A DNA stretch of 64,000 bases from Polytrichum commune (taxonomy: Eukaryota > Streptophyta > Polytrichopsida > Polytrichales > Polytrichaceae): contig OX485806.1 in the NCBI GenBank assembly GCA_950295325.1, positions 42,284,001 through 42,348,000 on the forward strand, written 5' to 3'. Each line of letters starts with the position of its first letter. Position 1 is the stretch's first letter. This document shows, piece after piece, positions 19,431 through 55,162 of this stretch. A model generated the notes under the pieces. The model was not told the origin of the DNA. It searched no databases and saw only the letters and a program-made list of their open reading frames with translations. The position numbers and the translations under genes were made by a program.

Positions 19431-19489
19431 TCGACACTTATCTTCGGAGCAAAAGATGTCGGGATCCATCCCCCGATGGTCGCCAATTA

Positions 19490-20493
19490 TGTGAGCCCAA
19501 AATGGTGCCCACATGTGTTATTAACCCTTTAAAACCATTAGGAGTTACATTTTGATGTTTTATGATTATTCTCAAAAATATAAAAAGAGTGAGGCTTGGT
19601 ATGAAGTTATGTTTAGGCCTTAGGTTTATGTGGTGTAGTTAATTAGAAGCTTAGCGTCATGAAGGAAGTTCTTTGGTTAGATGAGTGTAGCATGTGGTGG
19701 ACCAAGGGGAGCTCCTTGAGTTTAAATATTTGAATTGGGATCCATCTTGTTGGTTTAGGAGTTGAAGGCTTAGTGGATAGGATAAGAGCCTACAAAGTAA
19801 GAAGATGATCGAGGGGCTTACTTAGCGGATATGATAAGAGCCTACGAAGTAAGGAGAGGATCGAGGGGCTTACTTAGCGGATAGGATAAGAGCCTACGAA
19901 GTAGGAGAGGATTGAAGGGCTTATTTTGAGCTTTGAGGGGTGCTCACCCCTTCCCTTCCCTTATATATTCTTTTATCTCACCTTCTTCAGTCACGTGTAT
20001 TCCTATTCACTCTCTCTTCCTTCACGCTCTTCCATCTTGCACGTGTAGGTGCACACGTGTGTGTGGGCACATGAGCATGTTGTATTGAGAGGGGAGTATG
20101 GGTAAAGGGGAGAGGTTCATACAAGGCCCCCTTACCCTCTCCCTTCCCCTCTCCTTCTCTCTCTCTTGTTCTTGTTGTTCCTCTTATAGAATTCACTTTT
20201 AGAATTAAAGTTGTGTGGGAATTAGTAGAAGAATTAGTGGAATTAGTAGAATTCATAGAGACTTGTAGGGGACTTAGTAAGGTTAAGTGTAGTAGTTGGT
20301 CGACCCTTGAGAAGGCCAATGCTCTACCTATTCAAGAAACTAACATTAATAAAACATCATGATTTCAAGTGAGTTGGGAGCTTGTTGAAATGGAAGTACA
20401 TTCCATGTTACCACGAGCTTTGGTATGACACATGTGATTTTCAAAACCATCATCCGGACTAGGACGCTTAAGGGTGGTGGGTTTGGCCTCACA
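19490..20493 (+). repeat. 3' LTR, complete
   Basis: 1004 bp, TGTGAGCCC to CCTCACA. It carries three copies of the 55-bp GGATAGGATAAGAGCCTACG unit (about 19765-19920). It ends with GTCC/GGAC and the GGGTGGTGGGTTTGGCCTCA block shared, inverted, with the starts of the minus-strand family A copies at 4492 and 43835 (and, weakly, 58871). Confidence 0.92.
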
Positions 20494-21783: not shown

Positions 21784-21788
21784 GGCTT

Positions 21789-24627
21789 GTGTGGTACTTT
21801 TGGGCCACCCCCTTTCGAGGGAGCCTAAAAGTATCACACAAGCCCTTCGGTGAAGGTGGCCTGCATTTGCAGGCGCCCAAGCCGAACCCGGATGATAGGT
21901 GTATAACGTGAGTAGTTAGATTTTTAAGGGAGATTAAATATGCGTCGTAGTACCTCCGGAGGTTAGGCCTTAGTTTTTTACTAGTGTGGCTTTAAACTCC
22001 ACTAACCAATTTCATATCTAGTTCTAACCTTAACCTACAACCTATTCTACGCGCAGACGCACCAGCCTTGAAACCAAGGCAATCCTAATTTGTGAATTGG
22101 GATGGTTCTGATACACCCAACCGGGTGTGACTCATACCACCCTAACTCAACGAACGGAATAACGACAATTTGATGGACCATTCAATTCTTCCTATTTCTT
22201 TATTTAGTTTTATTTAGTTTTCTAAGCGGGGGAACTTGGCCTAAGTCCCACCCTTCACACAAATTCCTTCTTAATTACTTACTTTTGTTTGCACGTCCTA
22301 ACTTACTACATTAACATATTAGGCATCACCCCTTACCTCGGGTCTCTTGCCAACAAGGGTTTACGATTTATTTTGTATGTTTTGATTGTTAAATGTGTTT
22401 ACACTGGATAGACCACGAAATGCAACTCAATGGGACCAGGGTGACGGGCGACCTGTAGGTTCAACATGTTGCGCAATCTTCATAAATTGGGGCCATTACT
22501 CCCAATCTATGGGGCCAACAACATAATAGTGGATTCGCGGGTCATTAACCCCACCTTTCCACCAACAACATTCAGAGTGGTCGTGTCGGTGATTAATCCG
22601 ACTTACCACACACGAAACTTGCTAATAAATGAAGCTACTACCACAAAACATACCAAGGGCCCCGAAAACAATGGAATTGGGTACTCCCTTGGCGGTCAAG
22701 TGGTCAAGCCACTTGACCTTACGAGATAGGTGAGTGGGTTTAGAGATGCGTACCTTAGCCGTGCTCCCTCCGATCCTAAATGGAAGGCTTAAGGTTAGTT
22801 AATTTACCTCAATTTTCCTCGGTTGATTTGGGCTTGATGTAGGCCGAGCCGCTACCTCCTTCCTTGCTCCACTTTCCGAGCGTCGACCTTGCCTCCTTCT
22901 TTGTAACTAGTTTGGTAGTAAGCGTACCTTAGTTAACAATTAAAATATAAAGTGTTATTCTGCCCTGTAATTTAATCCTAAGCATAATATTTATACTTAG
23001 TGCACCAAATTATCTTTCCAATGATCTAAAAATCACTCTAATCGGATAAGAAATGCAAAAGTTATGAGGGTTGGAAGTGTGAGGTCGATTCAACCGACCC
23101 TTCCAACCCACCTATCTACCTTCTAACTTCAAGAATTCATAGCACATTCCTTACTACTTGGATCTAGGCTTTCCTTATACCATTGGAAAGCTATGAACAA
23201 GCTCTAACTAGAAAAATTATGACATCAGCAGGTTAAGCTAATAGAAATTCAGCGGACTCCTTGTAACACAGCAGTCAATCAAGAAGGCTTAAACTATGTA
23301 TCTCGCCTTCAACAATTCATATCTAATTCAAATCTTAGTCAAATCAAACGTTCTATATGACCCTGGAGAGATATTAAAAATATGTATTTGATAAAAATAT
23401 GTGATTAGAAAGGTAAGCCGAAGTGAACCCAGCAGGTCCTCTGTAATGCAGCAGTCAACCAAAAGTTCTCAAACTATGTGTCCCATCTTGCACAATTCAT
23501 ATCTAATTCAAATCATGCTCAAATCAAATGTTCTAAGCCATTTTGGAAAGCTACACAAAAGTTCTACTTGGGAAAAATATAATTTCTTGGAATTAAAATT
23601 CCTATTGGGCTCGCAGGTCTGATCCAGCAGCCGCTACCCACAAGACCACCCAGTTTTTCTACTCCATCTTTGAAAATCCATAACTAATTGTCATCTCAAC
23701 CAAATCACAAATGGGAAACGGCTATGGATAGCTATATGAAATCTCTCTAAGAGAAAAATGATAAGTATCTTGTTCTAGCTTTTGAACTAAGCCTTCAGGG
23801 CATTGGCAGATGAGGTCTATAATGCCTCTACTCAAAACTCTACCATCCAACCTACCTCTACAAAAGAAGGAATAATTTTGTTGGTGTGTTAATAAACACA
23901 CAACCTAACTAGGAGAGAGAGAGTAGAGGAGGTTCTCAAGCCTTTCTTTTAGACCATTGAGAATACATGCTAAAGGATTTTTTCCTAACTACATTGAAGC
24001 AGGGCTTCGCCCAAAAACTAGAAAAAGAAAGAGAGCTACAAAGTGGAAGGAGGGGTTTTTAAACCCTCTCACAAAAGGGTTGGACCCCTCCTCCACCGGA
24101 TCCATTTTTCAAACCCTTTCCCGAAATTTTGGCTCGGGGGTTTTTCCGGTTGAGGTTGCCACCCTCTCGCCGAGGTGGCTCCGACAAAAAACCTTTAGAA
24201 ATCTTTCTAATTTTTCCGCCATCGAGTTGGCAAGGGGGCAAGTGGGCAAGTATCCCCCTTGCTCTCTTTCTTTTTTGTCTTCAAAATTCTTCACGCCGAT
24301 TTTATCTTCTTACGTAAAACACCTCCAATAGTCTTGTGTGCCTCACACTAACTAATAAACTAACACTTGCTTAGCTAGCATCTACTAACATTTGCTTAAT
24401 AACTAGCATCTACTAATATTTGCTTAGCTAGTTGTTTTTACTAGCTAGCACATTTTTTCTACTTTGCTATCTTCTAGCACTACTTAGTTTCATTTTGACC
24501 TTCCTTCTTCTAGGCTAAATGCTAAATGAACTAATTTTTCCTAAATTCCCTATCAATTCTAACTTTTAATGCTAACATTCTAACTAAAAGTGATCCCGCA
24601 GAGTGGTGGACCACTCAAAGGGTTCAC
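21789..24627 (+). mobile_element. 2839-bp non-coding element X, copy 1
   Basis: This segment is an almost identical inverted copy of 52319-55157; both are exactly 2839 bp by these boundaries, with only scattered single-base differences. It is flanked by GGCTT (21784-21788) and AGCTT (24628-24632), a 5-bp duplication with one change. Ends are GTGTGGTACTTTTGGG and AAGGGTTCAC; because both copies share T before and A after, TGTG/CACA ends with a 3-bp duplication are also possible. Both ends can fold into hairpins. There is no protein-coding frame. Inside are degenerate roughly 200-bp repeats (ATTCATATCTAATTCAAATC at about 23316 and 23497). A very long solo LTR is the most conventional explanation. 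Confidence 0.9.
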
Positions 24628-24863
24628 AGCTTGCTAAAGTGAAGAGAAGGATTATGGCCAAAGATGATGCTCCAATTCCAGACGAAATCAATGATGTTGC
24701 AAATATTTATTTTTATTGAGAGAAAATAAGAAGACAAATAACCTTCTAAGAGAAGCCATAGTTGTGCATAATTTACTAGCAGAATGTTTGTGGCAATATC
24801 AAATATGGTATAAATATAGTATACTGGATACATATAACGATAGTGATATGATAGAGCAGTAAC
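24628..24863 (+). pseudogene. PIF/Harbinger transposase, C-terminal part after the insertion
   Basis: Directly after the duplication the frame reads AKVKRRIMAKDDAPIPDEIN, in the same frame as the transposase before the insertion. A frameshift near 24720 then leads to NNLLREAIVVHNLLAECLWQ and a stop at about 24863. The acidic/basic tail is consistent with the end of a Harbinger transposase, though the tail itself is not a conserved domain. Its position is the main evidence. Confidence 0.6.
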
Positions 24864-32449: not shown

Positions 32450-33414
32450 TGTCGCAACCCTTGCTAGCCCCCCTTGACAATCTTGCCAATTTTCAATTCT
32501 AGCAAAGGTTACGAGCGCTAACCATTCGCATTCCGCCATGCTAATGGTTAGCTCCTCCTACCCCGGACCTTATAGTTCATAGGAGGGAACCAACCCTCCT
32601 ACTTTGCTTTCGGGACTCACCCCTTAATCGGTAACCCATTCCTAGATGTGGACTTCCGTCCTTGGAAGTCCAATCCCATGTTGATCATCGCGTTGCCGGA
32701 GCAACACTACAACAACCCGAACCATACTAGGCAACTATGGCCTCACAATGGGCCAAAGCCCATCGAGGCTGAGCCGTTCGACCTCGGGTGGGTGAGGCCA
32801 CACCACCTCACCCATATAAGCCTCTAGGACTTCACGCGGGGCCCCTACCCCTCCGTCAACCAACCTCTTGTCTCTCTACCAAGAGTTGGGGCCAAGTGGA
32901 CATTTTCCTTTAGCTGCTGGGCCTAGAACCCCCCAGCAGCTTCAGACCATCATAACTTCCTTGTATGATGTCTGATCATAACAACCAACCACTCCATCTT
33001 CATCTATGCTTCACGTAGATGCCGATGGGCTCCTCACTTGCCCCATTCGGGCAAGTATTGAGGAAGTTATGCCTGTTTGAACCTTGGCAGTCCCGGGAAT
33101 CACTCCCAGGCACTGCTGTACCAGGGCGCTGTCCCGGGACAGCGCCCCACTCAAATGGCCATAACTCCTAGATCACACCTCCGATTGAGGTGTTTTTGAG
33201 CTTTCTAGAATCACCATGCCATGAGCTACGCATAACTCATGGCCTTACCCTTGTGCCTCCTAGTCTTCGTGGGTGGGAGGCGTTCCCAACGCCCGGGGCC
33301 CTCACCCACACTAGGATCACTTGGGCCCTCTCACCAACGGCGCCACAAGTCCCGGGTGTCACTCCGGGGTCCCCCTTGTGCCCATGGTGTTTCGGGCACT
33401 CCTCATGGAGAGGT
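32450..33414 (+). mobile_element. Family C LTR, nearly complete
   Basis: Starts TGTCGCAACCCTTGCTAG and ends at GGAGAGGTG, lacking only the last few bases (CGCGACA) of the LTR. At that point it is fused to a methyltransferase fragment, with GTG shared at the joint. A full LTR of this family is about 941 bp (14163-15103). Confidence 0.82.
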
Positions 33415-34122
33415 GTCGTAAGTTGGCCTCACTGATGAGTGTGACATCACGAGGGAGATGTGAAAAACACCCACGAATGGCAGTCGGGTGTAACTGCTGT
33501 GGGTACAACACCATCAACTGGTGAAGATGACGACGAGCCACACGGGTGGACACTTGCGAGTTGTCCACATAGACATACCGCTTGACTGTAAGGCCAGCTT
33601 CCAATACGGCTGCTAATCATGTGCCAATGCCCCCAAACAGCTTCACCAAAGTAATCCTAGTGTCTGGAGGGCACCACAAAATGGGGAGTGCCAATGTGGA
33701 TAGACTATCCGATATGATTGGTGTGGTAGAACTGAGAGAGAGGACAATGTTTTCACAGCGTTGGAACAAGTCGGAGGAATCACGCCACAGAGGTAGAGGG
33801 TCCTTAGAATGGCGTACCAAGGTATGCCTAGGTGTCATCTCTCGTGGGTCTTCAACACTCCCCATGAATGCCAATGACTCCTCCAATAATGCGGATCCAT
33901 GAGGCAATGTATCCACCATAGCACTGGATCCAAAAACCATGGATAATGGTGCGATGGTTGCAGCCGTTGCGAATGCCACAGGAATGAGTTCCCTACGACC
34001 GTCTCCAGCCGACCAACCTGGGCGGATCCAAGCCTCCTCAGTCCAGTTGTCCAATCCAAAACCAAGGGGGTAAAGTGCTTGCTGACCAACTAAAATATCA
34101 TAGTTGGTCGCATCCGTCACCC
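33412..34122 (-). pseudogene. Fragment of protease plus DNA methyltransferase from a second copy
   Basis: On the minus strand this matches 38080-38795 of the larger element, with clear divergence. It starts in the retropepsin tail (TDATNYDILVGQQALYPLGF), runs through the linker, and includes methyltransferase motif I with its surroundings (FGGIGTWLAAVLEAGL, VYVDNSQVSTRVARRHLHQL). It ends at NLRHL, just before the catalytic PCQ block. It has no stop within the shared part, and keeps a CGA (Arg) where the larger copy has TGA. One Gly of motif I is Trp here. It is truncated at both ends by joints to LTR sequences, so it cannot make an enzyme. It proves the methyltransferase was part of a multi-copy element. 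Confidence 0.9.
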
Positions 34123-34239
34123 TCTATTTACACTATTGGATTCTCCCTTGGTGGAGTGAGAGATAGCTTGATTAATTGTGTACATTTGAAGAGAGATGTA
34201 GAGCTCTTGTGAGTGTTCTACTCTCTTCCTTCTCACTTC

Positions 34240-35880
34240 GCAAGAATGCGCATGATTCCTTTTCTTTTCTTCCAATCTTGAGTTACAACACTCAAGAAAG
34301 AGTGTGAGAACAAGTGGTGGCGGGATTGTGGAGTGGAGAACGACAAACATCGCGGATTAGCGGAGCAACAAGAAGAAAGAGGTGTATTTGTGAAGTGCAC
34401 ACATCACTTTGAATTGTGGTGAGAAATCTTTGAATTTTTCACGGAATTTTGTACCATTTGTTTGCCCACAAGCATGAATTTGTGAAGTGGGAGGCGTACA
34501 AGTATTTGTGATCTTCAAAGAGATCAAAATCTTCCCAAAAAAAAAAAAAAATTGAAAGGAAGAAGAGGGAGGCGGCCTGCCTCCCTCCGCTGCTGGGTCT
34601 GTTGTAAGAGTTGGTCTGCGGTTGCCCGCGGCGGCGGTGGCTTGCATGCCTGCCAACCATCAAAGGCACCAGGCCCTTTAATTAACTAACTCGGGAGGCA
34701 GTGACAATAAATAACAATACTAGGCTTTCACAAGGAATGAATACAATGTAAATCCCTAAACAAGGATCCATAGGAGGCTAGTGATCGGGGAGAGATTTTT
34801 TGGGTATCATCGGTTGAGACCCGGGTGTTTGCAAATCCAACCGGTTACGTAGTGACAATTCGTTTTATTTTTATTTTTATTTTATTTTATAAATGAATTA
34901 ATGCCTTAATTAATTAAAAACCGGACTTTTTAAAATTAAAAATTAAAAAACCGGATTTTTAATTTTTAATTACATTAATTATTTATTTTATGTTTTCCTT
35001 CAACTTCTCATTTTTCTTTTCTCTCTAAGAGGTCAATTTCTTGTTTTCATTAATCATGAACACAAGATGAAACCAAATTTCTTATGAAATATTAAGGTGT
35101 TTGGGATTGCTTTTAGGAATCGTGTTGCACGAAATTTCTGAGGAGTGTCATTGGAAATTGGGTGGAATATGGAATTCCGTTCGGCCTAAAATAAATTATT
35201 ATTAGGGTCGAATTGTGTTTGTCAACACATATTCCCGGCATTCTTGTGAGGAGGGATTCTTAGGTTGTAGTGGGAAGATGAGAGATGTACATAGGTAATA
35301 TTTCATTTTCTTAAGCAACAGGGGCTCTTCATTTTGACCACCAACCGCAGGCGGGTGCCGGTTGGTCGCGGTCGCTTTCAATTGTTTAAGTGTTGTTTTG
35401 GGGAAAAGGATCCAATGTTGTTATTGCATTGTTCCTTGTATTTTGTTGTGGTACCTTTCCCCGTGGCGGGCTGTTGTGTTGGAGTTTTTCAACATTGCCC
35501 CATTTTTGTGTTGTCCTAGTTTGTGATAGGGTATTGTGGGGGTGAGGTCGGAGTAATGACCGAGGAGACCCTTGTGTGTGTACCAAGTGGGCGGTGCTTG
35601 TATTCCCTTATAGTGAGGCTGGATTGATGACCAGCAGACCATAAGATTTGGTGGTGGTTGCAGGTGCAGGTTGCTTTTACCCTAATACCACATTAGTTTA
35701 GGTTGTTGGCTCCAGTGACCAAATCCATTGCGGGTTTATGGTTACAACTCGGAGCCAACATCATCGTTCTCCGTCTCCGGCATCATCGCAAGGTCAATCT
35801 TTATACCCGTGATAGCACCCGACGAGGTTTTTTAGCCTACTTCGGCGTGGGGGACTGCCACTCGGTCTCACGTCCTTTGG
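34240..35880 (+). other. 5' leader of the methyltransferase retroelement
   Basis: About 1.6 kb between the LTR remnant and gag with no convincing protein. The part from about 35090 to 35880 is clearly repeated at about 63010-63800 (shared blocks include TGGTCGCTTTCAATTGTTTA-type sequence, GGAGACCCTTGTGTGTG, AAGTGGGCGGTGCTTGTATT and GATAGCACCCGACGAGGTTT). The earlier part (34240-34700) ends in a poly-A run at 34538-34551. Possible LTR or leader, boundary unknown. Confidence 0.55.
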
Positions 35881-35898
35881 GTGGGATCCTTTGACGAG

Positions 35899-37769
35899 AT
35901 GGAGGAGGAGACGCGAGGCGGCATCCGGGACCGATTTTCTGGTCCAGCGGGGACCATTTCCTTGCAAGATTGGAAAATTTGGTTCAGAATATGGATGAGG
36001 GAGAAGCGTCAACGCAATACCAACTTCAATGATTGGTATGCGTTCGAGCTTCTGTCACAGCATTTGGAGCACGAAGCTCTCCAAACCTATGAGTAATGGA
36101 CGGATGCTCATTGGATGGAGTTGTGCCAAGTGGAGCGGTACTGGGAGACTCGGGTTGAGTTGGTGTCCGCATTGAAGGAAGGCGCAGCTTCCAGTTTGAT
36201 GGCCGTTCCTGAAGTTAAGCCAGAGGTACCGGAGGGAGATATGTGGTGGATGTGGAGGGAGCTCCTCCTGGTGAGTCGAGGGCTAGGGGTCCTGCTCTTG
36301 CCGCGGCGAGTACTTCGAGCCCCATTCTTCCACTGTCACGTTATGCCCAGGCTACCCAGGCGGCATTAGCTTCTTTAGGAGCTCCGCCGGATTTTGGTCC
36401 TCTGCAGGAATTCCAACTCCATTTGGAGGAGGAATATGGAGGCTTCCGCCGCGATCAAATGCAGCGTATCCAGGACTTTCGACGGGAGAAAGATGACACA
36501 CCTCGTACCATGTACACGAGGTTGGTGAGGTTTGCCAGGGAATCTGGAGGTGTTTTTGCTAAGAGCCAGTTGGTAAAGGTGTTTTTGTCAAAGATTGACA
36601 AACGCCTCATTGACTTAGCTTTGCCCAGGATCATCATGGATTTTGGTGGCCAAGCGACATTTGCGGAAGCTTTCGCCATTGTTGAGCAGTGTGATCGTGC
36701 ATTGTGTCAGCACGACTCCACTGACTTGGTGTCCATGCTAGTGGATTCTAGCAAATCCCGGAAAGTTCCGGTTGCGACTGCGGGGTTGGCGGAGGCAGAA
36801 ATGGACAGGACCTTGCATTGTTCGTCTTGTGGGCAGGCGGGCCATGCTAAGAAAGATTGTCCTTCAAAGCAAAAGCAAGCCCAGACCGTCACTACTCCGA
36901 AGCGGAAACCATTTGTTCCCTCTAAGGGCGCGGCAAAGGGGGCGGGTAATCAGTTACCCAAACAGTTGAAGTGTTCCCATTGTGGGCGGAACAATCACGC
37001 AGTGGAGAACTGCTTCGCTCTCCATCCAGAGAAACGTCCTTCTTCCGAACGGGAAAAGACGTTGAAGGCGAAGATTGGTGTCTTAGAGGAGAGGTTCAAA
37101 ACTTTGGCATCATCTAGCCAAATTTTGGACTCACCATCTACCTCCGGAACTAAGGCTAGTTCTTCCACTCCAGATTATTATATGTTTGGAGCTTCTGGAC
37201 AGGTGGTGAGTTCCGCAGCGGTGACACGTGCTCAAACCGTGTCACAATCCACGCCTCCGACCACAGGGGAGTCTGTGGACAACTTACGCGCTCGGAACAA
37301 TGGTCCTGCGGATCAAATTGGCCAGGCACGTCTTCCATTGTCTTTTGGATTGGCTGACGCTGCCCAATCTATCAGTGGTCGTAATCCGAGCTTGGAGGCT
37401 TCGAATCCGGAGACCGACGTGGTGCACACTTTGGCATCCAAAGTGTTGCACATCCCTTTGTTCACAGCGATGGAGTGGTCGTCATCAGATGTCCAACCTG
37501 CTAAGGTTTTTCACCTAGCAGGTAGGATTTTGGAGGGAAAGGCATCCCCATCTTCTTTGACTGTGGCTCAAGCTGCCGCGGACCTTCCTACCACGGAGGA
37601 TCCGGAGGAAGCGGCCAAACGGCGAGCGAGGCTTGCGGCTGAGGCCATTATGTCTTTTGACGCACACACCTCAGATGGCCAAGAGCCCACCTCATCTTAT
37701 GATTCACCAGCCTCCGCAGGTGCAGCTTATCTCTCAAATGTAGCTGCTCGACCTGCTCGCGAGTGTTAA
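35899..37769 (+). pseudogene. Gag protein with two CCHC zinc knuckles
   Basis: Gag packages the element RNA. The frame begins near 35899 (MEEETRGGIRDRFSGPAGTI) and runs SLQDWKIWFRIWMREKRQRN; a TAA at 36094 and a frameshift near 36240 interrupt it. The main part (36243-37769, 508 residues) holds the retrotransposon gag core (FRREKDDTPRTMYTRLVRFA, LVKVFLSKIDKRLIDLALPR). Then come two zinc knuckles of pattern C-x2-C-x4-H-x4-C: CSSCGQAGHAKKDC and CSHCGRNNHAVENC. A coiled segment and a low-complexity Ser/Ala-rich tail follow. It ends at TAA (37767), but the same frame continues into the protease. This is therefore probably an internal CAA-to-TAA change in a single Gag-Pol frame. Confidence 0.9.
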
Positions 37770-38170
37770 CGCATTCGACCTGGCTTTGTACGGATGGTGA
37801 ATGATTCCGAGATTTTGATGGTCCATCGGACTAGGGGCAACCCTATTCGCGTTGCTCCCCAGTGTGTGATGATGGATTCAGGAGCACAACCTGTTATGAT
37901 CGGCAAGACGCTTGGCGCAGGCATTGCGGTTGACAACCGACGACTTGGCTCCATGCCCATTTACCATCGTCACATCTATTGGCCACGTGGAGCGGGCCAC
38001 TGGTTGTACTTGGGAGCCATTACAGCTTAGCTTCTAAGTGAAGCCTGGAGATTCACCCGCACCTCTTTTTCTTAGGTGTGCGGTGACGGATGCGACCAAC
38101 TATGACATTTTAGTTGGTCAGCAAACACTTTATCCCCTCGGTTTTGGTTTGGACAACTGGACAGAGGAGG
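37770..38170 (+). pseudogene. Retropepsin (aspartic protease)
   Basis: The protease matures Gag-Pol. The active site is VMMDSGAQPVMIGKTLG (Asp-Ser-Gly, about 37868-37920). The C-terminal half, CAVTDATNYDILVGQQTLYP (about 38080-38140), includes the YDILxG block typical of the family. A frameshift lies between the halves (about 38030). The first half is in the gag frame; the second shares its frame with the methyltransferase. The order gag-protease-methyltransferase-RT places the extra domain inside Pol, between protease and RT. Confidence 0.82.
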
Positions 38171-39531
38171 CTTGGATTCGACCAGGTTGGTCAGCTGGAG
38201 ACGGCCGTAAGGAATTTATTCCTCTGGCCTTTGCCGCGGCCGCCACCATCGAACCATTATCCATGGTTTTTGGGTGCAATACTATTGTGGATACATTGCC
38301 TTATGGATCCGCATTATTGGAGGAGTCATTGGCATTCATGGGGGATGTTGAAGACCCACGAGAGATGGCACCTAGACGTGCCTTGGTGCACCATCCTAAG
38401 GACCCTCTACCTCCGTGGCATGATTCCTCTGGCTTGTTCCAAAAATGTGAGGACATTGTCCTCTCCCTTGGTTCTACCACACATTTCATTCCGGATGGTT
38501 CATCCACGTTGGCACGTCCCATTTTGTGGCGGCCGCCAGACACTGGAATTACTTTAGTGGAGTTGTTTGGGGGCATCGGCACGGGATTAGCAGCCGTATT
38601 GGAGGCTGGCCTTACACTCACACGGTATGTCTATGTGGACAACTCTCAAGTGTCCACCCGTGTGGCTCGTCACCATCTTCACCAATTAATGGTGTTGTAC
38701 CCTCAACAGTTGCCTTCAACTGCCATTCATGGGTGTTTTTCACGTCTACCTTGTGATGTCACACTCATCAGTGATGCCGACTTATGACACTTGGATCCAG
38801 TGGATATGGTGATTGCGGGATGGCCATGCCAGGGCCATTCACATGCTGGAACAGGCGGAGGACTAGAGGATCCCAAGTCTAGTCTATTTTGGGACCTCAT
38901 TCGCCTCATGCAGTGGTGGTAGTCCCACCAACCTTTCCGTCCAGGGTATATTTTCGAGAATGTACCTTTGTTGGGAGACTCTCGGGACAAGGTGTTGGAA
39001 GGCGATTATTATGTTCGTCAACACCTTAGAGATCCCATTTTTGTGGATGCCACGAGCATTGGTTCTTATGCCCACCGGCCTCGGTGGATTTGGACCAACC
39101 TCGCACCATCATCTACTTTAGCTACAGCATTTTCTGCGGTGCCTCCACCTTTTGATCAAAAGGTGGATGACATCTTGGATCCAAACCGGACTTCTTTGCC
39201 GGTTGTTCGAGATAATTTACCCCCGTTGGCATTGGTCAACAAAATGGGGGCACCACGGCGGGCCTTTCCCACATTTATGACGTTTCCACAGTCATTCGCT
39301 TTCCGCGATAGGGGGCCGGGTATGGTGTGGGATGTTCACACCAAAACCCACACCGAACCATTGGCTGACGAACGGGAGCGTGCCATGGGATTCCGCAGTG
39401 GCACCACCGCAGCTCCCGGCCTTTCTGAGGGCCAACGACGCTTCGTGTTGGGCCAAACTATGGATCTTCATACCATGGTGTGGACTGTTGCTTTATGCCT
39501 TTCATTGCCAAGGCATCGTGGTGACCAATAG
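38171..39531 (+). pseudogene. Cytosine-5 DNA methyltransferase domain in Pol
   Basis: After a roughly 120-residue linker the C5-methyltransferase motifs appear in order. Motif I, which binds S-adenosylmethionine, is TLVELFGGIGTGLAAVLEAG. Motif IV with the catalytic Cys is MVIAGWPCQGHSHAG (about 38806-38850). Motif VI, with the catalytic Glu, is YIFENVPL. Motif VIII is AHRPRWIWTN. Motifs IX-X are ERERAMGFRSGTT with a Gln-Arg-Arg and VLGQTMDLHTMVW, resembling DRM/DNMT3-type ends in the family as I know it. All lie in one frame (38038-39531), interrupted only by TGA at 38785 and TAG at 38920; both are C-to-T changes of plausible CGA and CAG. The inverted fragment still has CGA at the first site. 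The PCQ is Dcm/DNMT1-like, so the subfamily is open. Confidence 0.92.
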
Positions 39532-40640
39532 TTGTCTCTGGGGGCAGAGGACTCTGGTCAGGGGGCACAGCAGTCCACACCCATGGAGGAAGGAATTCAC
39601 GCCATGGTTGGAGAAGCCGAACGAATTTCTCAATTCGAGCAGCATGTGATGGAGGAGCTTTGAGCTCAATATTTTTACACTGCTTCAGTTTCTTCGCCTC
39701 CGGTGGTGGCTTCATCATCACATATTGGTGGTTATGAAGAAATGTCAGACTCTAGTGCTAGCACCGAGACTGGGGGCATGGTTAAGGCCCCCTCCTCTCA
39801 TTAGCAATTAGAGTCTGTGCCAGCATCAGGTGGTTCTCCTTTGGTGGAGAGGGAGACTACAGAGTTTGATGATTGGCTACTTGAATTAGGCCTTCGTCTC
39901 ACTGGTGCTGAGGCACGGAAGGTACGAGCATTTATTCGCTCGTACCGTAGATGTTTTGCTTTTAGCCTTCAGGATCTTAAAGGTTATAAAGGAAAACCCT
40001 ACCACATTCAGTTGGAGGACGACCATCCCATTTTTCGGAGACCTTACAGGCTCGTTGCCGAGAGCTCTTGGCAGCAGGGCTAATCGAACTTTCCAACGGG
40101 AAATATGCTTGTGCTACGGTTATGCCATCAAAGAAGGATATCTTTGGCAATTGGACGGAGAAACGGATGTGTGGGGATTACCGTCCAGTTAATCGGAAGA
40201 CCAAGTTGGATCGGTATCCCATGCCAATCTCGGAGGAGTTGTTCGATGCCATTGAATTTTCTCGGGTCTTCAGCACCTTGGACTTGAGATCCGGATATCA
40301 CCAACTTCCATTACTTAGGGGAGATCGGGTGAAGACCGCATTTTGGGGAGTTGATCATGATGGGAAAGATCAACTATACCATTGGAAGTTTCTTCCATTT
40401 GGCCTCAAGAATGCGCCTGCTGAGTTTCAGAGAGTGATGGACGAAGTTCTCTCTAGCTCGTCTTTTGCTCGGTGTTACATTGATGACGTAATCATTTTCA
40501 GCAAAACACCACAAGAGCATGTAAAGCATCTTCAAGCCGTTTTTGAGCGATTATGGCGGTGGGGATTGCGCTTGCACCATGGCAAGTGCAAGTTTTTCCA
40601 TGACCGACTAGCATATCTAGGTCATATGATTATCCCATGA
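39532..40640 (+). pseudogene. Linker and reverse transcriptase
   Basis: The methyltransferase frame continues through TAG (39529), TGA (39661) and TAG (39802) as a Ser-rich linker and then the RT start (FRRPYRLVAE at about 40030). A frameshift near 40060 moves to a second frame: AAGLIELSNGKYACATVMP, RMCGDYRPVNRKT, the palm block FSTLDLRSGYHQLPL, and FLPFGLKNAPAEFQRVMDEV. The catalytic box is CYIDDVIIFS (YIDD, intact), then HGKCKFFHDRLAYLGHMI. A TGA at 40638 precedes the connection to RNase H in the same frame. These are canonical Ty3/gypsy RT blocks. Confidence 0.92.
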
Positions 40641-41205
40641 GGTCTTGGGGTGCAACAAGCTAAGGTGGACGCCTTGCAGAAGATCCCGGCACCGGTCGAT
40701 GTGTCGAGACTTTGTGCTTTCTTGGGCTTGGCGAATTACTATCGTCGATTCGTCAAGAACTTCAGCTTGATCGCCAAGCCTCTTACCATTCTCACGAGCA
40801 AGGACCAACCTTGGGCTTGGGGTCGTGAGCAGCAACAGGCATTTGAGACATTGAAGCAGAAACTGGGTGCAGCTCCAGTGCTTCGACGTCCGGATGTTTC
40901 CAAATCCTTCCAGTTGCATACGGATTGGAGTTTATTGGGTTTGGGAGTAGTTCTCACTCAGAAGGATGATTTTGGCCGGGAGTATGTTGTTGCTTACGCT
41001 TCGCGAAGAAATAACACGGCGGAGGTTAATTATTCGTCCTACGAAGGAGAAGCATTGGCGGCGGTATGGGCTATTGCCCATTTTCGGCCGTATCTTTATG
41101 GTGAGCACTTTACTTTAGTGACTGACCATCAGCCGTTACGGTGGCTCATGGAGTCGGATAAGCTTACTGGCAAGCTTGCCAAGTGGGCTTTGTTGCTCTA
41201 GGAAT
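40641..41205 (+). pseudogene. RT connection and RNase H
   Basis: The thumb/connection (RLCAFLGLANYYRRFVKNFS, QQQAFETLKQKL) is followed by RNase H with its acidic residues: LHTDWSLLGLGVVL, VNYSSYEGEALAAVWAIAHF and FTLVTDHQPLRWLM. At 41199 a TAG stands where Gln is expected in the conserved (L)QEYDFE block. Right after EYDFELD the sequence jumps to the integrase core, so the RNase H tail and the integrase zinc domain are deleted. Confidence 0.9.
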
Positions 41206-42398: not shown

Positions 42399-42941
42399 TG
42401 TCGAGATGTGTTGTTCATGTGTGACCATGTTATGTTTTAGTGTTGTTTATTAATGGTGGTTGGTACTCGAGCTGCAGTGACACACGATCGGTATTTACAT
42501 GACAGCTGTGACGGTATGCGGCGTCAGCGATCACACCTTATCCGTTGGACTTCATCCATGTTTTGGATGAACCTTAGTTTTGGAAAGTGAGGCTCCTAAG
42601 TGAGGAGCCTCCTCCTTGGCTTGGCATTCTTGCCAAGTCAAGTCTTGTAAGTTAGTGTGTGAAGAGAGCTTGTGTGAGGTGTAGATTGCGTGATTTTGCA
42701 ATAAATTTTGAGTTCTTCTCCCTTTATTTACACTCTTGGATTCTCCCTTGGTGGAGTGAGAGATAGCTTGACTAATTGTGTGCATTTGAAGAGAGATTTA
42801 GAGCTCTTGATAGTGTTCCACTCTCTTCCTTGTCTGTCGAGGTGTGTTGTTTATGTGTGACCTTGCTATGTTTTAGTGTTGTTTGTTAGTGGTGGTTGGT
42901 ACTCGAGCTGCAGTGACACACGATCGGTATTTACACGACAA
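42399..42941 (+). repeat. Family D LTR, 3' copy, with a second partial copy
   Basis: A first LTR start TGTCGAGATGTGTTGTTCAT (42399) runs to about 42834. A second start TGTCGAGGTGTGTTGTTTAT (42835) repeats only the first 107 bp and ends ATTTACACGACA at 42941. The shared part includes ACTCGAGCTGCAGTGACACA. Two adjacent starts suggest unequal recombination or a second insertion. The block 42721-42834 recurs at 34123-34235. Confidence 0.65.
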
Positions 42942-43834: not shown

Positions 43835-45341
43835 TGTGAGGCCAAACCGCCCACCCTTAAGCGTCCTAGTCCGGGTGAGGGAATGGATCTCACATTCGTG
43901 TTCCCATGACTCCATCTTACCAACCTCGTGAGAATCCATCACATTTCCCATCAAATCTTGCACACCAATTTATTCCATAATGAGATTATAAGCATTAAAA
44001 AATGCTCTACCTTATCTATCCCCTTCTCTCTACACTAACTTACACACCAACTTCACTCATTACAAAAAGTTCATCCCTAGACCACCCTCTAATGATGGAG
44101 CAATACCCCCATTAAGTCCTTGGCCCTACCCGGTCCGTAACCGGCTCGTGCCCGGTATTCTACCCGGTGCAATGACCTTCTCATACCCGGTCTTCCCTCA
44201 GGGCATCAGTCCTTACCCCGTAGCAGCAACTATTTGCATTTCAGTCCGAGCTCCTGGATTCAGTCCGAGCTCCTTACCCATTAACAGCAACTACTTGCAT
44301 TTCAGTCTGAGCACCTGGATTCAGTCCGAGCTCCCCAGCATCTGCAACTACTTGCATTTCAGTCCGAGCTCCTGGATTCAATTCGAGCTCCCCAGCAGCT
44401 GCAACTACTTACATTTCAGTCCGAGCTCCTCAGCAACTGCAACTACTAGCATTTCAGTCCGAGCTCCTGGATTCAGTCCGAGCTCCCCAACAACTGCAAC
44501 TACTTGCATTTCAGACCGAGCTCCTGGATTCAATCCGAGCTCCCCAGCAACTGCAACTACTTGCATTTCAGTCCGAGCTCCTGGATTCAGTCCGAGCTCC
44601 TCAGTAGCTGCAACTACTTGCATTTCAGTCCGATCTCCAGGATTCATTCCGAGCTCCTCAGCAGCTACAACTATTTGCATTTCAGTCCGAGCTCCAAGAT
44701 TCAGTCCGAGCTCCCCAGCAGCTGCAACTACTTGCATTTCAGTCCGAGCTCCTTAGCCCTTCTTAATATGGTCGTCCCCTACCTAAATTCCACTAAGTTC
44801 CCCTACTTACTTCCCCTCCTAATTTCACTAATTCCACTAAGTCCCCCTACTTACTTCCCCTCCTAATTTCACTAATTCCACTAAGTCCCCCTACTTAATT
44901 CCCACATTTTTTTCCAACCTCTAAGAGCTGAACCTCCTAGAGAAGAGAGAGAGAGAGAGGAGAGGAGGAAGAAGAGAGGAAGAGAGAAGGAAAGAGAGGG
45001 GAGGGCACCCAAGACCACAAATCCCCTCAACCTTCACCTACTTAGTAGGACCTTATCCTATCCACTAAACCCTCACCCCTAAACCAACATAAACGTGTTC
45101 TAAATCAAACATTTAAATCAAAAGCACTTCTCCTTGCTTCACCAAAAACTACTCACTCAACCAAAACACTTCCTAATGTCACTAAGCTTCTACTTAACCA
45201 CACAAAATAGGCTTAAGGCCTAAAACATAAACCACACCAAACCTCACTCTTTTTATACTTTTGATTGTTTCAATAACACTTCAATTGCAATTCTAAATGA
45301 ATTCTAAACATAAAACACATATGAGCACTCATTTTGGGCTC
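43835..45341 (-). mobile_element. Family A LTR inserted next to the hAT terminal repeat
   Basis: Starts TGTGAGGCCAAACCGCCCAC with the AGTCCGGGTGAGG block, and ends near CACTCATTTTGGGCTC (45341). The last bases (ACA) and a clear target duplication are missing. It begins immediately at the inner edge of the terminal repeat (CTAGCCCCCGT). It holds a 57-bp minisatellite (44222-44755) and a hairpin at 43991-44006. Confidence 0.78.
44222..44755. repeat. 57-bp minisatellite in the LTR
   Basis: About nine units of the form TTTCAGTCCGAGCTCC, TGGATTCAGTCCGAGCTCCC, AGCAGCTGCAACTACTTGCA. One unit is shortened. Long open frames on both strands here are a by-product of the repeat, not genes. Confidence 0.95.
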
Positions 45342-49907: not shown

Positions 49908-52313
49908 CTAATACCTCTTCCTAGTACATTTGATACCTCTCATAGTTTTCAGGCGCCCTCCACCCGTACCAGGACTTGAATGCACTTCATCTCTACTTCC
50001 ATCTATAATTGCATCCCCCACTGTACTTCCACCTCCAACTCCGAGACCACCTCTTCCATCGGATTGACTGTGTGGAAGCGAAACTGATGCGGGTGGAATT
50101 GCAATTGGTATGTTCTCAACAACATGTCGATGAACAGATGGACGGCGTGGCGCCTCTATAGCAACATTTCTTGAAATATTGTGTATAGCAACCAAAGTAG
50201 CACCCACAGCAATTGCACGTAAAACACCCAATCAAGAAGTATTGGCAATACTTCGAGTGAGAGGACGATGTTGACGTTGTACATGCACTTGCACCGTAGA
50301 GGTGGATGCAATTTCTTGAAGAGCACGAAATCGAGTTATAGGCATTTCAGCAACATTGGGCGTTTGAACTTCTATACGATGGTTGGATATGAGGGAGGCT
50401 TCCATGGATTCAGAATGTACTATGGCTGGAAGTGGATCCTGTTGAACATGCGTTGGCTCATTTGCGGGTAGTACATTGTCACCTCCACCAAAAGAAAGAT
50501 AATCGCTATGAGGTTGCAAGGAATCTACTTCAATTCCTACATTCTCTGTTGCCCCCATAACAACATTATGGTCAGAGGGAAAACCTTATTCAGTATGGAG
50601 GGTTTCAAAAGGTGGTCCTCCAATAGACCCCTCATGATCGTCATGCATTCCGTCGTTATGATGGGGGACATCCGTTTCATCAAAATCAAACACCCCAAGG
50701 TTTCCATCACTACCATTGCCATCATCATCTTCTGAATTATGATTCTCTGAATCGAGATCATCCAAATCAAAGTCAATGTCATCAACATTGTTGTCATCAT
50801 CATTTCCGGCCCTATCATTTGGATCCACGTCATCTTCGTTGTCATCTTCTTTGTCAAGGTCATCGTCAGAATGGACCTCATTCAATTCGTACCATTGCGC
50901 AGGTTTTGGGCCCCTCCGATGTCAAATGAGCCTACTATTGGTATATATGTAGACGAGGTCCTCAACACGACTATGCTTCAAGCGATTGCGACTCTTGTTG
51001 TGAACATATGAGTACATGCTCCAATTGCGCTCACATGCGGATGCGGAACATACTTGTGCAAGGATATGTCTTGCTATTGTTTGGAGGGCCTTAGCTCCAC
51101 CTCCCATTGCATCCCACCATTCATGGAGAGGTGCGGCATGCACGTTCGGGTCTGTAGAATCAACAAAAGGCCCTCGATTTTCAAGGAAATCTTGGTACTG
51201 GTGGAGGATTTGGACATAAGTGTCCTCATCTGGAGCAAGCCTACGAATAACTTGATTTAGGATTGTACTCGAATTCTCATCCTCATGGAGTGGGGCCCAA
51301 CCACGTAGAAGTGGATTTAACATCGCTCCAGCCCAATGAAGATCATTCAACATCAACCTCCATCTATTTTGAAACATTAGCATAGCATTTGCAGCAAGCT
51401 CAAGGCTTAAACGAAATGGAGGTTTATTGAATCCACGAATATGGGTTTGTAAATCATGCATGACCTTCCAAGCCAATCCCATTGGAGGCGCCTTGCCATC
51501 AAATACACAAAGAGCTTTAACAACCGGGATCACCATATACAAGAAATTTTCACACGTGTTCCAGAATCCATCGGAATGTATAAAACGTCGCACTACAAAG
51601 CCCTTCATGTAAGCGGTGCGAGATCTCCTCCTCAAGTCACGCATTAGAGTAAGCCAATCCTCATCAACCACCATTCTTTCCAAAGCATTGCGTATTTGAA
51701 GAAGACGTTCTATCATGATGAAGTTCGTTGCAAAACGGGTCTCTACAGGTAGGCGGAGTGAGAGATTTGGTGATAACCTCCGGAATATAGCTTGATAAGC
51801 ATGATGGTTTTTAACAAAAACACAAATATGGCACGCTTTTTTTACCAACTTTTTCACCCATTCCTCCTTCCCCCAATCTTCTAAGAGGAGATCTAGGCAA
51901 TGCGCAGCACATCCTTGAGAATATAGATCGGGATTTGCTCGAATCAAGTCGCGAGCAGCGGAGGCCATAACTGGGGCATTGTCGGTGCAAACTTGGACCA
52001 CATTATGTCGACCAACCTTTTCCACAAATGGTTGAATTTGAGCAGCAACGTAGACATGATCCTTGTGATTTCCCGTAGTATCAATGGTACCCAAGAGAAC
52101 GTCTCCCTTTGTGCCACATTGAAGAACGTTTAGGAGAGGTCGGTTTTGCACGTTGTCCCATCCATCACAACATATTGTAACGCCATATTTGTCAATGGAA
52201 TTCCCCAGCTTCTCCTTCACTTGCCTATCTAGATCAACTTTTTTAGCAGTTAACAACTTCGTACGGATTGCATTGTACGATGGTGGTGTGTAGGCTGGCA
52301 TTCGATGGCGAGC
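49908..52313 (-). pseudogene. hAT transposase, catalytic and C-terminal part
   Basis: hAT transposases move DNA using an RNase H-like DDE core with an all-helical insertion. Downstream of the inserted element the frame reads TARHRMPAYTPPSYNAIRTK, then the first catalytic Asp block (GVTICCDGWDNVQNRPLLNV), the second (VVQVCTDNAPVMASAARDLI), and AAHCLDLLLEDWGK. The C-terminal dimerisation block, with the catalytic Glu region, is LAQVCSASACERNWSMYSYV followed by KSRNRLKHSRVEDLVYIYTN. TGA (50922), TAA (50586) and TGA (50232) then interrupt one continuous frame. That frame goes on as a long Asp-rich tail (DDNNVDDIDFDLDDLDS) and a low-complexity end to 49908. The tail of over 300 residues is long for the family. 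Confidence 0.93.
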
Positions 52314-52318
52314 AGTTT

Positions 52319-55157
52319 GTGAACCCTTTGAGTGGTCCACCACTCTGCGGGATCACCTTTAGTTAGAATGTTAGCATTAAAAGTTAGAATTGATAGGGAA
52401 TTTAGGAAAAATTAGTTCATTTAGCATTTAGCCTAGAAGAAGGAAGGTTAAAATGAAACTAAGTAGTGCTAGAAGATAGCAAAGTAGAAAAAATGTGCTA
52501 GCTAGTAAAAACAACTAGCTAAGCAAATATTAGTAGATGCTAGTTATTAAGCAAATATTAGTAGATGCTAGCTAAGCAAGTGTTAGTTTATTAGTTAGTG
52601 TGAGGCACACAAGACTATTGGAGGTGTTTTACGTAAGAAGATAAAATCGGCGTGAAGAATTTTGAAGACAAAAAAGAAAGAGAGCAAGGGGGATACTTGC
52701 CCACTTGCCCCCTTGCCAACTCGATGGCGGAAAAATTAGAAAGATTTCTAAAGGTTTTTTGTCGGAGCCACCTCGGCGAGAGGGTGGCAACCTCAACCGG
52801 AAAAACCCCCGAGCCAAAATTTCGGGAAAGGGTTTGAAAAATGGATCCGGTGGAGGAGGGGTCCAACCCTTTTGTGAGAGGGTTTAAAAACCCCTCCTTC
52901 CACCTTGTAGCTCTCTTTCTTTCTCTAGTTTTTGGGCGAAGCCCTGCTTCAATGTAGTTAGGAAAAAATCCTTTAGCATGTATTCTCAATGGTCTAGAAG
53001 AAAGGCTTGAGAACCTCCTCTACTCTCTCTCTCCTAGTTAGGTTGTGTGTTTATTAACACACCAACAAAATTATTCCTTCTTTTGTAGAGGTAGGTTGGA
53101 TGGTAGAGTTTTGAGTAGAGGCATTATAGACCTCATCTGCCAATGCCCTGAAGGCTTAGTTCAAAAGCTAGAACAAGATACTTATCATTTTTCTCTTAGA
53201 GAGATTTCATATAGCTATCCATAGCCGTTTCCCATTTGTGATTTGGTTGAGATGACAATTAGTTATGGATTTTCAAAGATGGAGTAGAAAAACTGGGTGG
53301 TCTTGTGGGTAGCGGCTGCTGGATCAGACCTGCGAGCCCAATAGGAATTTTAATTCCAAGAAATTATATTTTTCCCAAGTAGAACTTTTGTGTAGCTTTC
53401 CAAAATGGCTTAGAACATTTGATTTGAGCATGATTTGAATTAGATATGAATTGTGCAAGATGGGACACATAGTTTGAGAACTTTTGGTTGACTGCTGCAT
53501 TACAGAGGACCTGCTGGGTTCACTTCGGCTTACCTTTCTAATCACATATTTTTATCAAATACATCTTTTTAATATCTCTCCAGGGTCATATAGAACGTTT
53601 GATTTGACTAAGATTTGAATTAGATATGAATTGTTGAAGGCGAGATACATAGTTTAAGCCTTCTTGATTGACTGCTGTGTTACAAGGAGTCCGCTGAATT
53701 TCTATTAGCTTAACCTGCTGATGTCATAATTTTTCTAGTTAGAGCTTGTTCATAGCTTTCCAATGGTATAAGGAAAGCCTAGATCCAAGTAGTAAGGAAT
53801 GTGCTATGAATTCTTGAAGTTAGAAGGTAGATAGGTGGGTTGGAAGGGTCGGTTGAATCGACCTCACACTTCCAACCCTCATAACTTTTGCATTTCTTAT
53901 CCGATTAGAGTGATTTTTAGATCATTGGAAAGATAATTTGGTGCACTAAGTATAAATATTATGCTTAGGATTAAATTACAGGGCAGAATAACACTTTATA
54001 TTTTAATTGTTAACTAAGGTACGCTTACTACCAAACTAGTTACAAAGAAGGAGGCAAGGTCGACGCTCGGAAAGTGGAGCAAGGAAGGAGGTAGCGGCTC
54101 GGCCTACATCAAGCCCAAATCAACCGAGGAAAATTGAGGTAAATTAACTAACCTTAAGCCTTCCATTTAGGATCGGAGGGAGCACGGCTAAGGTACGCAT
54201 CTCTAAACCCACTCACCTATCTCGTAAGGTCAAGTGGCTTGACCACTTGACCGCCAAGGGAGTACCCAATTCCATTGTTTTCGGGGCCCTTGGTATGTTT
54301 TGTGGTAGTAGCTTCATTTATTAGCAAGTTTCGTGTGTGGTAAGTCGGATTAATCACCGACACGACCACTCTGAATGTTGTTGGTGGAAAGGTGGGGTTA
54401 ATGACCCGCGAATCCACTATTATGTTGTTGGCCCCATAGATTGGGAGTAATGGCCCCAATTTATGAAGATTGCGCAACATGTTGAACCTACAGGTCGCCC
54501 GTCACCCTGGTCCCATTGAGTTGCATTTCGTGGTCTATCCAGTGTAAACACATTTAACAATCAAAACATACAAAATAAATCGTAAACCCTTGTTGGCAAG
54601 AGACCCGAGGTAAGGGGTGATGCCTAATATGTTAATGTAGTAAGTTAGGACGTGCAAACAAAAGTAAGTAATTAAGAAGGAATTTGTGTGAAGGGTGGGA
54701 CTTAGGCCAAGTTCCCCCGCTTAGAAAACTAAATAAAACTAAATAAAGAAATAGGAAGAATTGAATGGTCCATCAAATTGTCGTTATTCCGTTCGTTGAG
54801 TTAGGGTGGTATGAGTCACACCCGGTTGGGTGTATCAGAACCATCCCAATTCACAAATTAGGATTGCCTTGGTTTCAAGGCTGGTGCGTCTGCGCGTAGA
54901 ATAGGTTGTAGGTTAAGGTTAGAACTAGATATGAAATTGGTTAGTGGAGTTTAAAGCCACACTAGTAAAAAACTAAGGCCTAACCTCCGGAGGTACTACG
55001 ACGCATATTTAATCTCCCTTAAAAATCTAACTACTCACGTTATACACCTATCATCCGGGTTCGGCTTGGGCGCCTGCAAATGCAGGCCACCTTCACCGAA
55101 GGGCTTGTGTGATACTTTTAGGCTCCCTCGAAAGGGGGTGGCCCAAAAGTACCACAC
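52319..55157 (-). mobile_element. 2839-bp non-coding element X, copy 2 (inverted)
   Basis: Near-identical inverted copy of 21789-24627 with the same length. It is inserted in the hAT transposase with AGTTT on both sides (52314-52318 and 55158-55162), an exact 5-bp duplication; an AAACTG 6-bp reading is also possible. Removing the element and one duplicate restores an uninterrupted transposase frame (FVHVVRET joined to ARHRMPAYTPPSYN), which defines the insertion precisely. Differences from copy 1 include single-base changes near 52363, 52450, 52908 and 52925. Confidence 0.95.
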
Positions 55158-55162
55158 AGTTT

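What the first reader, a model, noticed from the sequence alone, without database searches (positions are those of the whole stretch)
38038..39531. DNA cytosine methyltransferase built into the Pol of a plant-type Ty3/gypsy retrotransposon
Seen: C5-methyltransferase motifs I (FGGIGTGLAAVLEAG), IV (GWPCQGHS), VI (FENVP), VIII (HRPRWIWTN) and IX-X (ERERAMGF, VLGQ) in one frame between retropepsin and reverse transcriptase. The frame is continuous with the protease tail upstream and the RT start downstream apart from C-to-T stops. Known: from memory, retrotransposon-borne cytosine methyltransferases have been reported in dinoflagellates and in a charophyte alga; they are not part of ordinary plant gypsy elements. 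Inference: the element may have methylated its own DNA or new insertions, perhaps to reduce harm or to mark copies for maintenance.
Basis: partly seen in the sequence, partly recalled or inferred. Interest (0 to 1): 0.95.

Follow-up and report, generated by a model that had tools for sequence, protein, structure and literature searches.

The report
Retrotransposon family carrying its own DNA methyltransferase
Many copies of a jumping gene in a plant-like genome carry a DNA-methylating enzyme, encoded with the particle proteins ahead of what looks like a leaky stop signal, which may let the element mark its own DNA.

Summary
Window 38545-39501 encodes a C5-cytosine methyltransferase (MTase) in a degenerate Ty3/Gypsy element. 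It is not a chance insertion: 40 of 40 scored places in the same 408-Mb genome (385 candidates) match at 92-100%, and 127 proteins fit the MTase profile, including records of Marchantia, Closterium, Klebsormidium and Monoraphidium. Profile and fold are closest to DNMT3; selection is purifying.

Three points change the reading. (1) In this subfamily the MTase is not on the Pol side. The gag-protease-MTase frame ends at UAG-CAA-UUA (39802-39810), the UAG-CARYYA leaky-stop motif. TAG stands there in 39 of 39 copies with data; every other in-frame stop is in at most 3 of 40. In the relative L055, RT-RNaseH-integrase-PHD follows in the same frame. If the stop leaks, the MTase is made at Gag-like amounts. 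(2) The integrase ends in a PHD finger. (3) Termini are A-internal-B-A-B with 4-bp target duplications (6 of 6), the DIRS-like layout published for KnitGypsy-Dnmt3.

So: a new variant of a known kind, part of a green-lineage Gypsy group with two domain orders that reaches land plants, from which one article says such methylases are absent. The likeliest role, self-methylation of element DNA, is inferred, not shown.

The parts
34117..34234 (+). remnant (last 118 nt) of the 5' terminal repeat A1; the rest of the 5' end of this copy is rearranged
   Evidence: 92% identical to 42717-42834; complete A1 repeats seen in other copies
36219..37769 (+). gag part, with two CCHC-type zinc knuckles (36819-36860 and 36972-37013)
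   Evidence: open 516-aa frame; Pfam zf-CCHC E 0.0062 for the first, below cutoff; second by eye; coordinates
37869..38154 (+). retropepsin-like protease (MMDSGAQPV ... YDILVGQ), broken by frameshift and stops in this copy
   Evidence: unbroken homologues P0008 and P0010 carry PF13650; profile order PR-MT
38155..38544 (+). spacer between protease and methyltransferase
   Evidence: shared by close homologues; partly low confidence in the model of P0001
38545..39501 (+). DNMT3-like C5-cytosine methyltransferase domain
   Evidence: model of relative P0001
39502..39801 (+). variable tail of the gag-protease-MTase frame
   Evidence: pairwise dN/dS 0.689
39802..39810 (+). TAG CAA TTA: conserved stop in leaky context (UAG-CARYYA) between MTase and reverse transcriptase
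   Evidence: TAG in 39 of 39 copies with data, whole 9-mer in 38 of 39; TAG CAA TCA in L055; motif described in PMC4132726
39811..39931 (+). possible RNA structure 3' of the stop
   Evidence: fold z-scores -3.22 (window) and -4.51 (L055); covariation not above shuffles
40155..40631 (+). reverse transcriptase
   Evidence: PF00078 E 2.3e-30
40818..41198 (+). RNase H
   Evidence: PF17919 and PF17917
41202..42053 (+). integrase remnant, with its zinc domain and most of the catalytic core lost in this copy
   Evidence: rve E 8.6e-4, residues 8-50 only; full integrase in L055
41978..42112 (+). PHD finger at the C-terminus of integrase, out of frame with it in this copy
   Evidence: PF00628 E 5.8e-11; in frame with integrase in L055
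42390..42398 (+). polypurine tract
   Evidence: sequence directly before B1; same place in 6 other copies
42399..42504 (+). terminal repeat B1
42505..42834 (+). terminal repeat A2; the B1|A2 border is the conserved palindromic junction
42835..42940 (+). terminal repeat B2, 3' end of the element
   Evidence: 93% identical to B1
33413..34121 (-). second fragment of the same family (protease end, spacer, MTase motif I, ending before motif IV)
   Evidence: 87% identical to 38082-38790 reversed

Best explanation
This is a degenerate copy of a multicopy Ty3/Gypsy retrotransposon whose first ORF is gag-protease-methyltransferase and whose second, reached by readthrough of a UAG-CARYYA stop, is RT-RNaseH-integrase-PHD. 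The methyltransferase is a DNMT3-like enzyme kept under purifying selection. Shown: the anatomy, the conservation across copies, the leaky-stop sequence, the split terminal repeats with 4-bp target duplications. Inferred: readthrough itself; that the enzyme, lying on the Gag side of the stop, is made in excess over RT and integrase and goes into the particle; that it methylates the element's new DNA before or at integration, so that fresh insertions arrive already marked; that the PHD finger helps to steer the integrase. The benefit would be a less harmful or less visible insertion.
For: Copies: 40 of 40 scored places at 92-100% identity. Stop. ORF1 of 17 of 38 listed relatives ends with the same block, 6 more with a looser one. 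DNMT3-like; C and Q of PCQ and E of ENV invariant in 36 sequences. Selection: pairwise dN/dS falls from 0.75 (dS under 0.05) to 0.26 (dS over 0.2), MTase core 0.30; against L055 pN 0.224 with pS saturated at 0.75 (20 copies). SymbioDIRS-Dnmt3 enzymes methylate CG de novo in yeast (PMC5890265).
Against: The one Gypsy-borne relative tested in yeast (KnitGypsy-Dnmt3) showed no activity, called inconclusive by its authors. Singleton changes among copies show C-to-T excess in CG, CHG and CHH alike (0.0083, 0.0072, 0.0066 per site and copy against 0.0015 for A-to-G), so host silencing or a general mutation bias can explain the marks on copies without this enzyme. Several other type A relatives read from MTase into RT without a stop, and type B carries the MTase between RNase H and integrase, so Gag-level amounts are not required across the group. 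No expression or methylation data were available.
Confidence: 0.5

Rival explanations
1. The enzyme works in trans on the host: it marks host chromatin, competing elements or DNA viruses, rather than the element's own cDNA.
For: Gag-side expression would give surplus enzyme. An antiviral role for such methylases has been proposed (PMC6338049, passages), and host-wide effects were discussed for Symbiodinium.
Against: Selection on a mobile element favours its own spread; no localisation or expression data either way.
Confidence: 0.2
2. The domain has a non-methylating or RNA-directed job, such as nucleic-acid chaperone or RNA methylation.
For: RNA methylation was raised for SymbioLINE-Dnmt; KnitGypsy-Dnmt3 was silent on DNA in yeast.
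Against: DNMT2-type tRNA enzymes score far below DNMT3 (1e-6 or worse against 1.6e-24); catalytic motif residues are invariant in 36 sequences.
Confidence: 0.13
3. ORF2 is expressed not by readthrough but by reinitiation, an internal start or an alternative transcript, the UAG context being incidental.
For: No ribosome or protein data; the RNA fold behind the stop has no covariation beyond shuffles.
Against: ORF2 follows in the same frame directly after the stop in L055; the hexamer fits CARYYA in two lineages that differ at an allowed position.
Confidence: 0.15
4. Types A (MTase before RT) and B (MTase between RNase H and integrase) captured related methyltransferases independently.
For: The two orders are nearly separated in both RT and MTase trees (1-2 changes against 10-20 in shuffles); roots unknown.
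Against: Type B proteins match the window's MTase at about 32-42% over about 320 residues, while DNMT3A aligns only in blocks; most type B and some type A elements share the integrase PHD.
Confidence: 0.3
5. Passenger gene or assembly chimera without function.
For: This copy is degenerate.
Against: Family-wide presence, purifying selection, a relative with both ORFs unbroken.
Confidence: 0.02

Closest known systems
KnitGypsy-Dnmt3 of Klebsormidium nitens (de Mendoza et al. 2018, PMC5890265; outline with abstract, sections 6, 9, 10, 11 and search passages seen)
   Same: Gypsy domain set with an intronless DNMT3-type domain in the polyprotein, DIRS-like repeat layout, purifying selection. A K. 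nitens protein with this domain (P0217, KFL_009030040, partial; that it is KnitGypsy-Dnmt3 itself is inference) has the order PR-MT-RT-RH-INT and is 32% identical over 96% of the query.
   Different: Here MTase and RT are separated by a conserved UAG-CARYYA stop and the integrase has a PHD finger; P0217 shows neither. 'PHD' does not occur in the paper's main text. Host and copy number differ.
SymbioDIRS-Dnmt3 and SymbioLINE-Dnmt (same paper)
   Same: retrotransposon-borne DNMTs; A-coding-B-A-B repeats in the DIRS type
   Different: tyrosine recombinase or LINE machinery; here a DDE integrase and 4-bp target duplications
Retrotransposon-embedded DNMT3s noted in a 2025 survey (PMC12344493, passages seen)
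   Same: DNMT3 members inside retrotransposons, said to be as reported in streptophytes and dinoflagellates
   Different: the passages name Copia and DIRS types and give no anatomy
Plant DNMT3 of Physcomitrella (PMC6453930, passages seen)
   Same: DNMT3-type catalytic domain, unrearranged motif order
   Different: host gene with a C-terminal DUF3444 according to the paper; here embedded in a polyprotein. No direct sequence comparison was possible.
TMV-type leaky stop UAG-CARYYA (PMC4132726, passages seen)
   Same: the hexamer rule after UAG
   Different: here between gag-PR-MTase and RT-INT-PHD; readthrough not measured

Membership tests
C5-cytosine DNA methyltransferase | motifs I, IV (PC), VI (ENV), VIII, IX-X in order with catalytic Cys | tested here: met
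DNMT3 class | closest by profile and fold to DNMT3 | tested here: met
DNMT3 class | motif IV reads PCN as in DNMT3A | tested here: not met
   PCQ here, PCN in DNMT3A; hence 'DNMT3-like', not filed as a member
DNMT3 class | groups with host DNMT3 in a tree with DRM, DNMT1, CMT | not tested
   the genome search for host methyltransferases did not complete (11 calls)
Ty3/Gypsy retrotransposon | gag-PR-RT-RNaseH-DDE integrase order | tested here: met
Ty3/Gypsy retrotransposon | same LTR at both outer ends | tested here: not met
   A-internal-B-A-B in 6 copies with 4-bp duplications
KnitGypsy-Dnmt3 type | Gypsy domains with DNMT in the polyprotein and DIRS-like repeats | tested here: met
KnitGypsy-Dnmt3 type | sequence homology to a K. 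nitens Gypsy protein with DNMT | tested here: met
   P0217, E 5.3e-55
DIRS element | tyrosine recombinase, no target duplication | tested here: not met
   rve integrase, 4-bp duplications
UAG-CARYYA readthrough | UAG followed by CARYYA with an in-frame ORF behind it | tested here: met
UAG-CARYYA readthrough | measured readthrough product | not testable with these tools
   needs a reporter or proteomics

The most novel reading that the evidence does not exclude
A retrotransposon group spread over chlorophytes, charophytes and liverworts carries an epigenetic writer (DNMT3-like enzyme) and, in many members, a reader (PHD finger on the integrase); in the branch of this window a leaky UAG raises the writer to capsid-protein level, so that each particle methylates its own DNA before integrating. 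The element thus sets the chromatin state of its own insertions.
Probability: 0.3. Interest if true: 0.87.

Novelty: new variant of a known kind. Interest (0 to 1): 0.7.

Why it matters
Silencing by cytosine methylation is how plants restrain retrotransposons, so an element that keeps the writing enzyme under selection turns the usual story round. The published cases read here are a dinoflagellate genus and one charophyte, described as independent captures; a 2019 article says transposon-borne methylases are not present in land plants such as tracheophytes (PMC6338049, passages). Here the same kind of element is found in Marchantia records and in many copies in an unnamed 408-Mb genome, with a second domain order that includes a chlorophyte record. 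The leaky-stop sequence, the PHD finger and the many copies make the question of what a mobile element gains from carrying a methyltransferase directly testable.

Tried and rejected
Single-sequence PDB searches gave only weak hits (E 0.2-0.3 at best); the family profile was needed. Viral collection: P0001 found no relative; the family alignment found 54 loci matching MTase regions at 27-59% identity, taken as ordinary viral or phage enzymes and not followed. One genome-collection scan gave one close relative (L055) and four Streptomyces loci with weak matches. Chance insertion, passenger and DIRS membership were rejected for the reasons given above.

A covarying RNA structure behind the stop was looked for and is not supported beyond folding energy. 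Rooting the A/B split was not possible. Rows dropped: P0253 (outlier); P0051, P0250, P0046 and P0035; P0253 and the window's other Gypsy RT (which fell inside A on a long branch). In the MTase tree the type B row P0225 stood beside type A rows, and only 6% of bootstrap trees put the two orders on clean sides (60% for RT). In one search seven copies (L070, L071, L084, L088, L090, L095, L097) were left out; copies with stops stayed in, stop codons skipped. L088, L071 and L089 were left out of alignment A3 (38 rows: window, L055 and 36 copies; cut short or interrupted there). P0177 ends elsewhere than its relatives. Papers: in the listings I noticed none on a PHD-bearing Gypsy integrase, and in those none on Marchantia DNMT retrotransposons; this is no proof of absence in print.

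Host: unnamed. Seven contigs hold 406 of 408 Mb; relatives in liverworts suggest a bryophyte, and seven chromosomes fit Polytrichaceae (recalled, untested).

Full report
OBSERVATION. Motifs I, IV, VI, VIII and IX-X lie in one frame at 38566-39456. The middle piece hits Pfam DNA_methylase at 1.4e-9; the flanking pieces alone hit nothing in Pfam. A weak zinc knuckle, RT, RNase H and a weak integrase remnant stand around it in Gypsy order. A second fragment of the same family, 87% identical and inverted, lies at 33413-34121. The window copy is broken: several stops and frameshifts, about 31 bases fewer in 38038-40200 than 31 of 39 other copies (lengths), and most of the integrase core missing against L055.

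THE FAMILY IN THE SAME GENOME. A search of the window's own assembly (408 Mb, 64 contigs) with 38530-39531 listed 385 candidates, of which 40 were scored and all 40 matched: the window itself and 39 others at 92-95%. I fetched the 39. The stretch from 38086 to the conserved stop is open and in frame in 12 of 40, one of them with an internal loss of length. Pairwise dN/dS among 33 copies (528 pairs; seven copies left out) falls from 0.75 for the closest pairs to 0.26 for the most distant; it is 0.30 for the MTase core, 0.30 for protease tail plus spacer and 0.69 for the tail behind the MTase. Against the relative L055, pN is 0.224 and pS 0.75, saturated, over the MTase core (20 copies that were full-length and stop-free there), and 0.290 and 0.749 over protease tail plus spacer (28 copies). 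This is the pattern of near-neutral decay after insertion on top of long purifying selection.

THE STOP. In the window the MTase frame ends at TAG CAA TTA, 39802-39810. TAG stands there in 39 of 39 copies with data (one of 40 is cut before it); the whole 9-mer in 38 of 39, the exception reading TAGCGATTA. All other stops in the window's frame are shared by at most 3 of 40 copies. Of 2000 9-mers, 49 vary in no more than one copy, so invariance alone is a modest argument; the shared stop is the strong one. L055, a 9285-bp contig filed under a cyanobacterial bin but carrying a eukaryotic-type element, has ORF1 (gag-protease-MTase; its start lies beyond the contig's first base) up to TAG CAA TCA and directly behind it, in the same frame, a 1047-aa ORF2 with RT, RNase H, integrase zinc and core domains and PHD. 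Both hexamers fit CARYYA, the rule known from tobacco mosaic virus and other plant viruses (PMC4132726, passages). Among 38 homologous protein ends printed, 17 close with the same block as the window's frame and 6 with a looser version; the DNA behind them was not available. The RNA behind the stop folds better than shuffles in both (z -3.22 and -4.51), but pair changes do not exceed shuffles, so a stimulating structure is only possible. If the stop is leaky, the MTase is made with Gag and protease, in excess over RT and integrase. This corrects the phrase 'built into the Pol'.

THE WIDER GROUP. Two protein searches gave 55 and 78 homologues; in each only about 8000 candidates were scored, so these are lower bounds. 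Of the 253 proteins then held, 127 matched a profile of the MTase core. Named records are Marchantia polymorpha (6), Closterium (3, one of them an MTase in which no other element domain was found), Klebsormidium nitens (1), Monoraphidium neglectum (1) and two bacterial bins that look like contamination; most are unnamed. Domain order was mapped by profiles seeded from L055 and iterated on the same proteins (tally): MTase before RT in 11 proteins (one, P0253, an outlier), MTase between RNase H and integrase in 40; 41 show only protease-MTase (the window's piece and L055 ORF1 among them) and 7 only MTase-integrase. The first order (A) holds Marchantia, Klebsormidium and Closterium records and this family; the second (B) holds Monoraphidium. 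The PHD finger is found behind integrase in 37 of 40 type B proteins (the other 3 end before integrase), and in type A in P0199, L055 and the window, but not in P0198, P0202, P0203, P0204 and P0217, which do have integrase. Integrase-PHD proteins also occur in the liverwort Calypogeia; whether those carry an MTase is not known. In RT and MTase trees the two orders need only 1-2 changes (10-20 in shuffles); clean sides appear in 60% of RT and 6% of MTase bootstrap trees, and A as one RT clade is not rejected (p 0.53). One capture followed by a move inside the polyprotein, or two captures of related enzymes, remain open.

TERMINI. For ten copies I fetched both flanks. The 5' end begins with repeat A (about 333 nt) and no B was found before it in 10 of 10 upstream pieces (in one the A is cut by the end of the piece). 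The 3' end reads B-A-B in full in 6 of 10, interrupted in 1, with only B found in 2, none in 1. In the 6 complete copies the outer ends TGTC...GACA are flanked by perfect 4-bp duplications, 6 of 6 (read by eye). A1/A2 differ at 0 to 7 of about 333 positions in the 5 copies where both are complete, and B1/B2 at 0 to 4 of 106 in 6, so some insertions are recent. This is the A-coding-B-A-B layout that de Mendoza et al. report for SymbioDIRS-Dnmt3 and, in words, for KnitGypsy-Dnmt3. The B|A border TTTACACGACAGCTGTCACGG is identical over 21 bases in L055, while the repeats otherwise align in blocks of 75-80%. Since what looks like the primer site follows A and the polypurine tract precedes B, ordinary reverse transcription should give B-A at both ends; cutting a two-repeat circle at the B|A palindrome would give what is seen. 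That last step is inference.

MARKS OF METHYLATION. Singleton C-to-T changes among copies are four to five times commoner per site than A-to-G and nearly equal in CG, CHG and CHH. This fits silencing in all contexts as in moss (PMC6453930, passages) or a plain mutation bias. It neither shows nor needs activity of the element's enzyme.

MECHANISM AND VERDICT. Best supported: a Gag-linked, DNMT3-like enzyme that methylates the element's own DNA around integration. The same idea was proposed for the earlier cases; activity was shown for SymbioDIRS enzymes, not for the Gypsy one. I put the anatomy at about 0.95 and the role at about 0.4; the joint figure given is 0.5. Novelty: new variant of a known kind.

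Noticed in passing
window 21788-24628 and 52318-55158: A 2.84-kb inverted pair at 99.75% identity, so a recent duplication or transposition of an unidentified repeat.
   Followed up: no
window 12189-20465: Another Gypsy-like element with 89% identical repeats at 12189-13109 and 19492-20465; its RT lies on a long branch against the MTase-bearing group.
   Followed up: partly
window 44206-44810: Tandem array with mainly 57-base spacing, open in one frame over much of it.
   Followed up: no
window 63284-63995: 74% match to the leader and gag start of the element (35382-36075), probably a further copy running off the window.
   Followed up: no
window 50922-52352 (-): Open 476-aa frame that resembles an hAT transposase by eye (recalled, not searched).
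   Followed up: no
L055 1-9285; proteins P0009 and P0228: Eukaryotic-type retrotransposon sequence filed in bacterial bins (cyanobacterium, Obscuribacterales, Minisyncoccia): likely contamination that can mislead gene catalogues. The L055 ends overlap by 127 bases.
   Followed up: partly
P0230 (Monoraphidium neglectum) 2352-2407: A Tudor-like domain behind the PHD finger (PF21743, E 3.8e-5, below its cutoff): a second possible chromatin reader.
   Followed up: no
P0253: MTase followed by a very divergent RT and a cellular-type RNase H; may be another class of element with its own MTase.
   Followed up: no
L110: A copy whose last repeat B2 is interrupted by about 940 bases, perhaps a nested insertion.
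   Followed up: no
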